NCBI GenBank assembly: GCA_002049495.1
Contig: LLYS01000006.1
Location: 1 to 64,000 of the forward strand
Source: Epsilonproteobacteria bacterium tcs-49
GTDB taxonomy: Bacteria; Campylobacterota; Campylobacteria; Campylobacterales; Sulfurovaceae
Length of the DNA stretch: 64,000 nucleotides
Reading direction: 5' to 3'
Shown here: positions 6,896 through 39,729 of the stretch, piece after piece
Layout of the letters: each line of letters starts with the position of its first letter
Position numbering within the stretch: position 1 is the first letter of the stretch
Notes under the pieces: generated by a model
What the model saw: only the letters and a program-made list of their open reading frames with translations
Told to the model about the DNA's origin: nothing
Databases searched by the model: none
Made by a program: the position numbers and the translations under genes

Positions 6896-7608
6896 GAGAG
6901 TTGGTTTTTCAAGTGGAGTTTAAAAGCGATGTTGTTTTGCCCGCTACTTCAAACACCGAGGGCAGAATCGAGCAGTTGGATTTTATAGCCGGATCAAACT
7001 TTTTAGGGATGGCCGCAAGAGAGTATTCTGAATTTAAAAATCCTTTTGATATGTTTCACAGCGGCAGGGTTCGATTTGGCGATGCGCACTTGCTGAAAAA
7101 CGGCAAAATGACGTATAAGATGCCCCTTTCCATCTTTAAAGAAAAAAACGACGAACATATAACAGTCAATCAGATAACAGATTCTATCGATAGCCTAAAG
7201 CAAGCAAAACAGCTAAGAGAAGGCTACATCACCAAAGATAGGCAAAAAGTGTTTGCAGAGTATGTGTACTCTCAAAAATCAGCACATGATAAAAAGCACA
7301 GACGAAGCAAAGAAAGCGGAATGTATGGCTACAATGCTCTCAAAAAAGGCAGCACCTGGCAGTTTGCGGTCAAGCTTGATGAAGGTATCGGCAAAGAGGA
7401 TGAAGCGCTGCTTGTCAAAACGCTTGAATCAAGCAATCGGCTGGGAAAGTCCAGATCGGCCGAGTACGGCAAGGTTGCGATAAAATATCTACCTGATGCA
7501 AAAAAAGATGATATTGCAAGCTTAGATAAAAACGATGATGAGGTTGTGCTCTATTGCAACAGCCGTTTGGCCCTTGTGGATGAAAACGGTAATCCTACGT
7601 ATATGTAA
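6892..7608 (+). pseudogene. csx10: 5' part of a csx10-like RAMP gene, interrupted by prophage
   Basis: RAMP-like ORF ending inside the prophage left end (TSD GTATA at 7599-7603); the 3' part resumes in frame at 39730. Confidence 0.8.
7599..7603. repeat. target site duplication GTATA, left copy
   Basis: cctac-GTATA-[TGTAAGGGGG...; second copy at 39725. Confidence 0.85.
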
Positions 7609-7989
7609 GGGGGTATAAGAAATGAAAGAGCTAGAATCTCAAAAGGCTCATCATTTAAAGCCCTTGTTTTAGGCGTTTGTTGTAGGTTGGACTTTCATTT
7701 TATCTGCGAAATTTTAGGATGATTTTTTCCTACCACTCCCAAAAGCGATTAATTTACTCAAAAAGCGACTCAAAAGCGATATGTTTAACCATCTACTAAA
7801 AAGCATTTAAACGCCCTATAAAGCTAATTTAAACGCTATTAAATGATATAGGCTTTAGGCACTCCCAAAAAATATCCCGTTTTAAAATTGAGGTTTATTT
7901 GAAGTTGTAAAATATATACTAAGACACATTTTTTTTAAACTAAGACACATTTAAAAAAAAGAAAGACACACAAGAGAAAGACACATTTT

Positions 7990-8715
7990 TCAATAGAGCT
8001 TAATCTTGCTTCTTACTACTCCTAGAATGTTGCACATTTGGAGCTTCTCATCTGTGTCTAGTTCTATGGGTCTGTAGTTTTCGTTTTCGCTTTCTAATAT
8101 AATGTATGGAGAGAGCGGCATTTTACTTAATCTTTTTACATAGAGTTCTCCATCTATGTTGGCGATCACTGTGTCGCCGTTTCTCGCCTCAGAGTCTCTC
8201 TCTACTATGATGTACTCTCCATCTTTTATGGATGGGAGCATGGAGTCGCCTACCACTCTTATAATGTCAAGCTTTTCAAACCTTTTTATATTTAGGATGT
8301 TTTCAAGAAAGCTTTTGTCAAACTCTAACACTGCTGGCTGGTTTTCATAGGCGTGGTTTCCATATCCAGCTGATGCAAAGATATCATCATAGAAGTTTAA
8401 TTTAATCAGCCTATTGTCTTGGTCTTCTTTTTTCCATGGAGCTTCAGTGATAGTATGTTCACTTGTTAGCTTCATTTTACTTCCAAGCTCTCCAATTTTT
8501 GGAATTTTTGTAGTATTTTCAAACAATTCTCTCATTTCAAAATCACAAACGGCAGAAATTCGCCTTATTACTTTTAATTTAGGATCACTCTCATCTGCTT
8601 CATAGCTTCTAAGCGTACGAACGCTTATATCAACGGCTTTTGCAAGCTCGTCTTGACTCATATTTGCTTGCTTTCTAGCATTTTTTATCCACTCTCCATC
8701 TGTTATATGAGGCAT
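7990..8715 (-). CDS. prophage repressor, HTH_XRE plus LexA-like S24 domain
   Basis: N-terminal HTH (MSQDELAKAVDISVRTLRSYE); C-terminal VVGDSMLPSIKDGEYIIVERDSEARNGDTVIA. Confidence 0.85.
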   Translation of the reverse strand: MPHITDGEWIKNARKQANMSQDELAKAVDISVRTLRSYEADESDPKLKVIRRISAVCDFEMRELFENTTKIPKIGELGSKMKLTSEHTITEAPWKKEDQDNRLIKLNFYDDIFASAGYGNHAYENQPAVLEFDKSFLENILNIKRFEKLDIIRVVGDSMLPSIKDGEYIIVERDSEARNGDTVIANIDGELYVKRLSKMPLSPYIILESENENYRPIELDTDEKLQMCNILGVVRSKIKLY

Positions 8716-8752
8716 TTTTTCTCCTTTTTAATGAAAATTTTCGCAGTTTCAC

Positions 8753-8780
8753 TTGACAAGAGGCAATTTTTGCATATAAT
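8753..8780 (+). promoter_or_regulatory. putative early promoter (TTGACA-16-TATAAT)
   Basis: Exact -35/-10 consensus hexamers between divergent repressor and early genes. Confidence 0.6.
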
Positions 8781-8950
8781 TACTTCAACATTTGATGACA
8801 TTGTATCGTAAAACGAGACAAAATGCACTAGGTGTTGAGTTTTTTTACAATTTGCGATGTACCGAAAGGTTTAAAACTGCGACCTGCATCGCCATTTTGA
8901 GAGGTTTTTTGTGTGGATAAAACACAGAAACAATGAAAGGATAAAAAGCG

Positions 8951-9181
8951 ATGACTGAGATGAAAAAATACTTTATAGACAACTGTATTAGCTTCGCTGC
9001 TTTTGCTAGAAAGCACGGGCTTGAAAAATCTACTTTGTCACGAGTGGTTAACGGCGAGATCAACTGCGAGAGACGAGGCGGAAATACAGAGAAAGTTGCA
9101 AAGGTGTTTTGGGAACTGGGTATCTGGGTAGGCGAAAAGCCCAAAGTACTCCAAAAAGCAGAAAAAGAAACAGACAAATAA
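8951..9181 (+). CDS. Ner-like/HTH DNA-binding protein
   Basis: SFAAFARKHGLEKSTLSRVVNGE; position between repressor and transposase. Confidence 0.6.
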   Translation: MTEMKKYFIDNCISFAAFARKHGLEKSTLSRVVNGEINCERRGGNTEKVAKVFWELGIWVGEKPKVLQKAEKETDK

Positions 9182-37838: not shown

Positions 37839-38034
37839 ATATGTTTCAAAAGATGGAGAGAGACTGGATCAGGTTGTTTATGCTCACTACAAGAGCTTAG
37901 ATGTTTTTAACTCTGTAATGGAGTTTAACAAGCACCTGCAAAACAAACCTATATTGAGTGCCGGTGATGTTGTTTATCTTCCAGAGATAGAAGTGCAAAC
38001 AAAGGTCAAGGAGCTTAAGTCGTTATGGAATTAA
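37831..38034 (+). CDS. tail protein X (LysM-like)
   Basis: SKDGERLDQVVYAHYKSLDVFNSVMEFNKHL...LSAGDVVYLPEI. Confidence 0.85.
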   Translation: MNRYVSKDGERLDQVVYAHYKSLDVFNSVMEFNKHLQNKPILSAGDVVYLPEIEVQTKVKELKSLWN

Positions 38035-38972
38035 AGCCTATATTTCAGATGCATGCAAACGGAGCTGATGTTACCCAGCAGCTCATGAAAAACAATGCAA
38101 CAATACAATTCAAAGACGAAGATGGAGGCGTGAGTGATGAGCTTACTATAAAGGTTTATGGTGACTTTGCTAGACCTAAGTACCAGGACGAACTCAAGCT
38201 TTGGCTTAGATATAAAGAGAGCGGACTTTTTTACTGTGGCACTTTTAAGGTTCAGACTACAGAGAGGCTTGACGGATATCTGCTTAATATCACTGCTACC
38301 GGTGCTGACTTTAGTGAGTCATTAAAACAAAAGAAAAATAAGAGCTTTGAGAATATGAACATTAAAGAGATATGCAAGATGATATCAGCTGAGCATGGCT
38401 TGAGTCTAAAAAGTGACTTTGAAGATATCTTTATTATACATCAGGCTCAAAACAACGAAAGTGATCTTCACTTCTTGAAAAGGCTTGCTGGAGAGCTCAA
38501 CGCTATTTTTGGCATCAAAAACAATACGCTTGTATTTATGAAAAAAACAAAAGATGGGCAAAAGAGTGAAGAGCTCCCTGAGATAACAGTTGATGCCAAA
38601 AAAGTCTCTAATATTGCTATAAAACACTCAAACAAGCTTTTATATAACAGCTGCAAGGCTATATGGCACGACACTAAGCAAAACAAAAAAAGAGAGATTA
38701 TTGTAGGCAGCGGTTCACCGCAACTGCTTCTTGAGGGGAGATTTAAGAATGAAGCAGAGGCTAAGATAAAAGCTACTGCAAAGCTTGACAAAGCAAACCA
38801 AGGCATTAAAAGCGGTTCGTTTAAATCTGCTGGTCTTCAAGTATATGCAGGCAGTAGGCTTAATTTAATCAATACAATAGGAGGTGAAGATGATGAGAGC
38901 TTCAGCATAAAAAGCGTTAATCATTCGTTTAGTGAAAGCGGATGGACTACATCTGTAGAGTTTGAAAATTAG
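38025..38972 (+). CDS. late control gene D protein
   Basis: ELKPIFQMHANGADVTQQL...SIKSVNHSFSESGWTTSVEFEN. Confidence 0.85.
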   Translation: MELKPIFQMHANGADVTQQLMKNNATIQFKDEDGGVSDELTIKVYGDFARPKYQDELKLWLRYKESGLFYCGTFKVQTTERLDGYLLNITATGADFSESLKQKKNKSFENMNIKEICKMISAEHGLSLKSDFEDIFIIHQAQNNESDLHFLKRLAGELNAIFGIKNNTLVFMKKTKDGQKSEELPEITVDAKKVSNIAIKHSNKLLYNSCKAIWHDTKQNKKREIIVGSGSPQLLLEGRFKNEAEAKIKATAKLDKANQGIKSGSFKSAGLQVYAGSRLNLINTIGGEDDESFSIKSVNHSFSESGWTTSVEFEN

Positions 38973-38995
38973 AGTTAAGTAAGCAAGCGGAGGTT

Positions 38996-39610
38996 GTGAA
39001 TGATATCAACGGTGACTTGATTAATCTTCATAGGATCATGCAAACAAGACCGCAGACACTATCGTTTTATCTTAATAATATGCTTATAAGCAGGACTGTG
39101 TTTGAGCGGATAAAAAGAGGTCACTGGAAGCCAAGAAACAAGATAGAAAGAGCAGCTTATTGCTACTACCAACTAACCCAGAGCTTTGGCTCAAAAGGTG
39201 ATAGCTTTGCCATGTCAGCCAAAAGTTGTAAACCTAAGAATATATACAAGAACTTCAAGACCTGGTCTGACAGACTCAAGATGGTAACTATAGAGAATAT
39301 GAGCTTTGAAAAGCTTATACAGACTTATGATAAAGAAGATGTATTCTTTTACTGTGATCCACCGTATGTGAGCGCTGAGTTTTACTATAAGAACACTGGA
39401 GGCTTTGGTCGCAAAGAGCATGAGCTCCCAGCAGAGCTTCTATCTAAAGTAAAAGGTAAGTTCTTGGTTTCATATAATGACTGTGAGCTTGTTAGAGAGC
39501 TATATAAAGACTTTAATATTCTAAACACAAAAGAGATTGATTATACACTGGGAGCTAATGCCACCGGAGTTAAAAAGAGTGTTTCTGAAGTGTTTATAAA
39601 GAACTATTAA
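38996..39610 (+). pseudogene. DNA adenine methylase (Dam/D12 type), N-terminally truncated
   Basis: Begins at VNDINGDLINLHR; DPPYVSAEFYYKNTGGF present; upstream FxGxG motif missing and a TGA lies in frame just upstream. Confidence 0.7.
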
Positions 39611-39724
39611 ACAGCATTTAAACACCGTTTAATTTTGCACATAAAATGAAAGTATCTAACCCGTTTTAAAGGTTGGACTTTCATTTTAAATACAAAAGAC
39701 TTTCATTTTAAAAACCGTTTTACA

Positions 39725-39729
39725 GTATA
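39725..39729. repeat. target site duplication GTATA, right copy
   Basis: CGTTTTACA]-GTATA-atctaacgg. Confidence 0.85.

What the first reader, a model, noticed from the sequence alone, without database searches (positions are those of the whole stretch)
7599..39729. Mu-like prophage inserted in a csx10-like type III CRISPR gene, with exact 5-bp TSD
The left border reads ...aatcctac-GTATA-[TGTAAGG and the right border reads TTTTACA]-GTATA-atctaacgg. Removing the prophage and one GTATA fuses 6892-7603 to 39730-40391. The result is a 1374-nt frame (458 codons with stop) reading ...DENGNPTYNLTAICKGLDKDN..., followed by the Gly-rich RAMP motif. A mobile phage has thus split an effector subunit of an anti-phage system, while flanking cas genes remain open.
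Basis: seen in the sequence. Interest (0 to 1): 0.85.

Follow-up and report, generated by a model that had tools for sequence, protein, structure and literature searches.

The report
Crippled Mu-like prophage splits CRISPR gene
A Mu-type bacterial virus has landed in the middle of a CRISPR immune gene (csx10) of a Campylobacterota bacterium, cutting it in two and very probably disabling that immune system, and the virus has since lost the parts it needs to move, so it looks stuck there.

Summary
A 32,121-bp Mu-like prophage (7604-39724, TG...CA ends) is flanked by an exact GTATA duplication (7599-7603, 39725-39729). It splits one csx10 gene after codon 237 of 457. Joined in silico, the halves give one open frame that aligns end to end with intact relatives: 93% identity to a 457-aa sister with the same junction, 59-65% in the next relatives. 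In 14 compared loci csx10 sits uninterrupted between the same two cas7 genes. The locus is type III-D; no second csx10 was found in the genome.

Two additions change the interpretation. First, the phage is probably no longer mobile: against 90-95% identical relatives it carries six deletions at 5-10 bp microhomologies, removing the last 146 aa of MuA, all of MuB, most of a replication-type ATPase and the start of a DNA methylase. Second, a nearby type I-B system has an in-frame TAG in cas3, so both CRISPR effectors look broken.

No spacer matches the phage, and cas interference genes are about 0.4-0.8% of the genome, so a chance landing is sufficient. Laboratory precedent exists (DMS3 in P. 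aeruginosa). Verdict: real, well resolved, a new member of a known kind, moderate interest.

The parts
7599..7603 (.). left copy of target-site duplication GTATA
39725..39729 (.). right copy of target-site duplication GTATA
7604..39724 (+). Mu-like prophage, 32,121 bp, TGTAAGG...TTTTACA; 17-nt motif GGTTGGACTTTCATTTT near both ends (7685 and 39671)
6892..7603 (+). csx10 (Cas5-group subunit) 5' part, codons 1-237; reads into the prophage and stops at 7606-7608
39730..40391 (+). csx10 3' part, codons 238-457; first listed in-frame start codon is TTG at 39753
2835..3722 (-). cas1 of the III-D locus
2369..2635 (-). cas2
   Evidence: PF09827
3719..3991 (-). second cas2-like ORF
   Evidence: PF09827 E 6.9e-6
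4124..4957 (+). cas6
4954..6387 (+). cas10 (III-D type; GGDD motif in KVILGGDDMTV)
   Evidence: PDLC02058 E 3e-161; sequence
6368..6895 (+). cas7 (III-D)
   Evidence: PDLC02110 E 1.5e-69
40384..41667 (+). cas7 (III-D, double length)
   Evidence: PDLC02107 E 2.7e-162
41664..42086 (+). csx19 (a PADLOC Cas11 model also hits it)
   Evidence: TIGR04423 above cutoff
42083..44389 (+). cas7 (III-D, long)
   Evidence: TIGR03986 above cutoff; PDLC02108
44433..45185 (+). transmembrane CARF protein, candidate ancillary effector
45859..47436 (+). Csx1/TM1812-like CARF protein with an RNDLAH motif (HEPN-like)
   Evidence: TIGR02221/TIGR02549; motif
2008..2159 (.). III-D mini-array, 3 repeats (GTTTCAATCCCCTTAAAATCGGGTCA...)
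   Evidence: near-identical repeat in the array of intact locus L055
48707..48805 (.). second III-D mini-array, 2 repeats
7990..8715 (-). prophage C-type repressor (HTH plus peptidase S24)
9191..10840 (+). truncated MuA transposase, 549 aa; catalytic D/D/E motifs present, last 146 aa of the 687-aa relative missing
10802..10812 (.). deletion joint J1, about 1638 bp lost (MuA C-terminus and MuB), AAGGT microhomology
11105..11119 (.). deletion joint J2, 537-794 bp lost, AAAGGAG microhomology
12402..12416 (.). deletion joint J3, about 135 bp lost, AAATGCAAA microhomology
12623..12631 (.). deletion joint J4, about 1050 bp lost (most of a replication-type ATPase), TGAGTTTGT microhomology
12857..12864 (.). 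deletion joint J5, 405 bp lost, ACTCCAAG microhomology
38977..38986 (.). deletion joint J7, about 258 bp lost (start of the DNA adenine methylase), AAGTAAGCAA microhomology
15345..23989 (-). head and packaging genes (tail completion, minor head, portal, terminase, major head protein, protease)
24834..38972 (+). baseplate, tail fibre, sheath, tape measure and hub genes
28195..31858 (+). diversity-generating retroelement: target gene 28195-30159 (VR 30023-30134), Avd 30195-30596, TR 30624-30735, RT up to 31858
38996..39610 (+). N-terminally truncated D12-class DNA adenine methylase
60835..61398 (+). CRISPR array beside the type I-B genes, 8 spacers, repeat GTTTCAATACAACAGTTTGTGTCGGTTCAAG
61855..62859 (-). 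type I-B cas1
   Evidence: TIGR03641 above cutoff
62868..63344 (-). cas4; the I-B operon continues beyond the window, to a cas3 with an in-frame TAG at about contig position 65071

Best explanation
An infecting Mu-like (transposable) phage of Campylobacterota joined its ends into csx10 of a type III-D locus by ordinary MuA strand transfer with a 5-bp stagger. The gene was cut after codon 237, inside its Cas5-like domain. The 5' part now ends NPTYM-stop and the 3' part has lost its start codon, so no intact Csx10 can be made and the III-D complex very probably cannot assemble. The prophage then lost its transposition and replication module through several microhomology deletions, so the disruption is probably permanent and not a reversible switch. 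Shown: the junction, the duplication, the single split gene, intact sisters, conserved gene order, the deletions, and no second copy found. Inferred: loss of III-D immunity, immobility of the prophage, the order of events (insertion first, deletions later), and chance as the reason for the site.
For: Exact duplication and open rejoined frame. Halves map to consecutive parts of one Cas5_IIId model. Uninterrupted homologues: 93% identical P0137, G029 65%, G079 61%, G094 59%. Gene order cas10-cas7-csx10-cas7-csx19-cas7 in related loci. Independent right-end match in IMG/VR. Fold of the intact sister matches the chain of the type III-D complex 8s9x that 8s9t names Cas7-Cas5-Cas11 (E 4.5e-18), then subunits of Cmr and Csm complexes. 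No other csx10 or MuA match in the genome. MuA truncated and MuB missing against 90-95% identical relatives.
Against: No expression, interference or induction data. Reads were not available, so a subpopulation with an empty site cannot be excluded. The truncated MuA keeps its catalytic D/D/E motifs, so some residual activity is possible. Translation of the 3' part from TTG 39753 cannot be ruled out, although no ribosome-binding site is at a usual distance.
Confidence: 0.9

Rival explanations
1. The insertion was selected: losing type III-D immunity resolved a conflict with this or another element, as when DMS3 lysogens of P. aeruginosa lose CRISPR regions by phage transposition.
For: The second CRISPR system (I-B) in the same genome also has a broken effector gene, cas3 with an in-frame TAG. 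The III-D arrays are reduced to 3 and 2 repeats, while intact relatives carry up to 6 and 32 spacers. Laboratory precedent: PMC11406979.
Against: None of the 11 spacers in the window matches the prophage, nor do 64 spacer candidates from related loci beyond 14-15-base chance hits. Cas interference genes are about 0.4% (III-D) to 0.8% (with I-B) of the genome, so a random landing needs no special cause.
Confidence: 0.15
2. The two parts are separate genes and the prophage merely sits between them.
For: Both parts are listed as ORFs.
Against: The intact 457-aa sister at 93% identity and many full-length homologues, uninterrupted loci, and a 3' part without a proper start.
Confidence: 0.01
3. The prophage is still mobile and acts as a switch that can restore csx10 by precise excision.
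For: Perfect duplication, undamaged csx10 coding sequence on both sides, catalytic MuA motifs kept.
Against: MuB absent, MuA tail absent, ATPase and methylase truncated. From general knowledge, precise excision of Mu-type phages is rare even when intact.
Confidence: 0.04
4. The deletions came first: a defective Mu-like element was inserted in trans by a helper phage.
For: Both csx10 halves and the rest of the locus show no stops or frameshifts, suggesting a recent insertion, yet the phage carries six deletions.
Against: No helper-type MuA elsewhere in the genome; deletion after insertion needs no helper.
Confidence: 0.1

Closest known systems
DMS3 (Mu-like) in Pseudomonas aeruginosa PA14 lysogens (PMC11406979)
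   Same: A transposable phage inactivates CRISPR-Cas of its host through its own transposition.
   Different: There it happens in the laboratory under self-targeting, by large deletions bounded by phage copies; here it is a natural simple insertion in a type III-D gene with no spacer match found.
Mu-like phages of Campylobacterota: Campylobacter phage CAM-P21, CMLP1 and Arcobacter AMLP1 (PMC2147049)
   Same: Repressor, MuA and head/tail gene order; MuA 45% identical to CAM-P21.
   Different: This copy lacks MuB, Gam, the MuA C-terminus and most of the ATPase, and carries a diversity-generating retroelement.
Type III-D CRISPR-Cas complex (PDB 8s9t/8s9x; Synechocystis III-Dv by my knowledge)
   Same: Csx10 fold matches chain A; cas10, csx19 and several cas7 genes present.
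   Different: Here csx10 is a separate gene and is broken; in 8s9t the Cas5 part is fused to Cas7 and Cas11.
Hankyphage, a transposable Bacteroides phage with a diversity-generating retroelement (PMC6199706, PMC12135933)
   Same: Transposable phage whose tail fibre is diversified by a DGR.
   Different: Different host phylum; this copy has a damaged transposition module.
Prophage integration in the Streptococcus pyogenes CRISPR locus (from memory, not read here)
   Same: A prophage inserted in a CRISPR-Cas locus, disabling immunity.
   Different: Site-specific there, as I recall; here transposition into a near-random target, probably frozen.

Membership tests
Mu-like transposable phage | 5-bp target duplication with TG...CA ends | tested here: met
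Mu-like transposable phage | DDE transposase of the MuA family | tested here: met
   phrog_310 E 2.6e-79, rve domain, motifs kept; C-terminal 146 aa missing
Mu-like transposable phage | MuB target-capture ATPase | tested here: not met
   No MuB in the prophage, present in the relatives whose held sequence covers the place. A derived loss in this copy: placement is as a defective Mu-like prophage, resting on the other rows
Mu-like transposable phage | Mu-type head and contractile-tail modules | tested here: met
Type III-D CRISPR-Cas | Cas10 of the III-D type with GGDD motif | tested here: met
   PDLC02058 Cas10d E 3e-161, GGDD
Type III-D CRISPR-Cas | csx10 (Cas5 group) | tested here: met
   both halves PDLC02088; fold match to 8s9x
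Type III-D CRISPR-Cas | csx19 and several cas7-type genes | tested here: met
Type III-D CRISPR-Cas | Csx10 model TIGR02674 above its curated cutoff | tested here: inconclusive
   17.4 bits for the 3' part against 177.3, none for the 5' part; only the halves were scanned, not the joined or sister protein. The family is placed by the other rows
Type III-D CRISPR-Cas | working RNA-guided interference | not testable with these tools
   csx10 is split; activity not measured
Diversity-generating retroelement | RT, accessory protein Avd, TR/VR pair with changes only at TR adenines | tested here: met
   12 of 12 TR-to-VR changes at A; bAvd and RVT_1

The most novel reading that the evidence does not exclude
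The split csx10, the stop in I-B cas3 and the shrunken III-D arrays are one selected loss of CRISPR immunity in this lineage, in which a transposable phage served as the mutagen in nature and then became a frozen, possibly partly domesticated resident.
Probability: 0.12. Interest if true: 0.6.

Novelty: new member of a known kind. Interest (0 to 1): 0.4.

Why it matters
It is a clean, base-exact natural case of a transposable phage cutting an adaptive-immunity gene, with an intact sister allele and a close, more complete phage relative available for comparison. It extends to type III-D, in nature, what was seen in laboratory lysogens of P. aeruginosa. Since Mu-type phages land almost at random, they may be a steady source of CRISPR loss, which bears on why CRISPR-Cas is so patchily distributed. 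In this case chance alone is sufficient.

Tried and rejected
Separate genes instead of one split gene: rejected. Self-targeting by resident spacers: none found, nor in 64 spacer candidates from related loci, nor against public phages. Second copy of the prophage or of csx10 as backup: none found. A first genome-contig scan with the joined protein alone confirmed no relatives; an alignment was needed. The apparent 420-bp gap at 20673 was first taken as a further deletion (J6); it is a tail-completion-type gene absent at that place while a tail-completion gene sits at 15345-15803, so it is not counted. The extra Cas10-palm hits in the genome are weak and probably GGDEF proteins (inference). Left flanks of several other Mu-like prophages of the order show, by eye, ordinary genes and no cas genes; this was not formally annotated.

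Full report
What was checked. The prophage proper is 7604-39724 (32,121 bp). The duplication is 5 bp and not longer. An IMG/VR contig that is about 90-93% identical over most of the phage ends within three bases of window position 39724, so the right end is confirmed from an independent source.

What was split. The 5' part (6892-7603) and the 3' part (39730-40391) match consecutive stretches of one model, PADLOC Cas5_IIId PDLC02088. The rejoined 457-aa protein aligns end to end with intact homologues in Sulfurovum-, Sulfurimonas- and Sulfurospirillum-type genomes. The closest, P0137, has 457 aa, is 93% identical and reads through the junction. In the 14 related loci compared, csx10 lies uninterrupted between the same two cas7 genes. 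An AlphaFold model of P0137 (mean pLDDT 74.7, moderate) matches chain A of the type III-D complex 8s9x (E 4.5e-18) and then subunits of Cmr and Csm complexes, which I read as the Cas5-group ones. The break after residue 237 falls within this domain, so neither part can hold a complete Cas5 fold (inference from the model).

The rest of the III-D locus is open: cas6, cas10 with GGDD, three cas7-type genes, csx19, a transmembrane CARF protein and a Csx1-like protein, with cas1 and two cas2-like genes on the other strand. The genes after the insertion are now 32 kb from the genes before it. No second csx10 was found in the genome.

The phage. Repressor, MuA, a minus-strand head module and a plus-strand tail module place it with Mu-like phages of Campylobacterota such as Campylobacter phage CAM-P21. 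Only one MuA match exists in the genome. Its MuA is 549 aa, while most relatives have about 670-705 aa; the 94% identical relative P0001 has 687 aa and its last 146 residues are missing here, though the D/D/E motifs remain. MuB is present in the relatives whose held sequence covers the place and absent here. Comparison with L067 and with G431 (L069, L074, L075) shows deletions at 10802-10812, 11105-11119, 12402-12416, 12623-12631, 12857-12864 and 38977-38986. Exact microhomologies at the joints are about 5, 7, 9, 9, 8 and 10 bp, read from the printed junctions. The ATPase and the DNA adenine methylase are truncated as well. Head and tail genes look complete. The phage carries a diversity-generating retroelement in which all 12 TR-to-VR differences are at TR adenines; a transposable phage with a DGR is known (hankyphage, PMC12135933).

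A second CRISPR system. A type I-B operon with an 8-spacer array begins about 20 kb downstream of the split gene. Its cas3 reads in one frame except for a single in-frame TAG; whether this is real or a sequencing error cannot be told here. If real, both CRISPR effectors of this genome are broken.

Cause of the site. None of the 11 spacers in the window matches the phage, nor do 64 spacer candidates from related loci beyond 14-15-base chance matches, and none matches public phages. Interference genes of III-D are 0.37% of the host genome, about 0.8% with I-B (the I-B length entered as an estimate). Chance is therefore enough. Selection for loss of immunity remains possible, with laboratory precedent in DMS3 lysogens (PMC11406979).

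Timing. The insertion needed active transposition, so either the deletions came afterwards or a helper phage acted in trans. The csx10 parts carry no stops or frameshifts. Against P0137 they differ at 11 of 237 and 20 of 220 residues, which does not by itself show decay.

Verdict. The finding is real and its main reading is right, with two corrections: the phage is probably immobile now, and a directed attack on immunity is not shown. It is a new member of a known kind. The paper searches turned up no report of a Mu-like prophage inside a type III-D gene, but they cover only the open-licence library.

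Noticed in passing
window 28195-31858: Diversity-generating retroelement in the prophage: target tail-type gene, Avd, TR inside the 5' part of the RT ORF; 12 of 12 TR-to-VR changes at adenines.
   Followed up: partly
G000:C14 about 65071-65073 (L052:4572-4574, minus strand): Type I-B cas3 has a single in-frame TAG with the frame open on both sides, so the second CRISPR system also looks broken.
   Followed up: partly
window 10802-12864 and 38977-38986: Six deletions in one prophage, each at a 5-10 bp microhomology, five of them within about 2 kb of early region.
   Followed up: yes
window 1872-2315 and 48572-48959: A 72% identical block with III-D CRISPR repeats (3 and 2 copies) flanks the whole III-D locus in direct orientation; one spacer is only 20 nt.
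   Followed up: partly
window 2369-3991: Two cas2-like ORFs flank cas1; the same set occurs in related loci L087, L088 and L094.
   Followed up: no
window 15345-15803 and 20673: A tail-completion-type gene lies at a different place than in close relatives, where one lies beside the terminase genes.
   Followed up: no
G224:C15 (L060): Another Mu-like prophage of the order has a broken MuA frame (a TGA is reported and the match splits near query residue 202).
   Followed up: no
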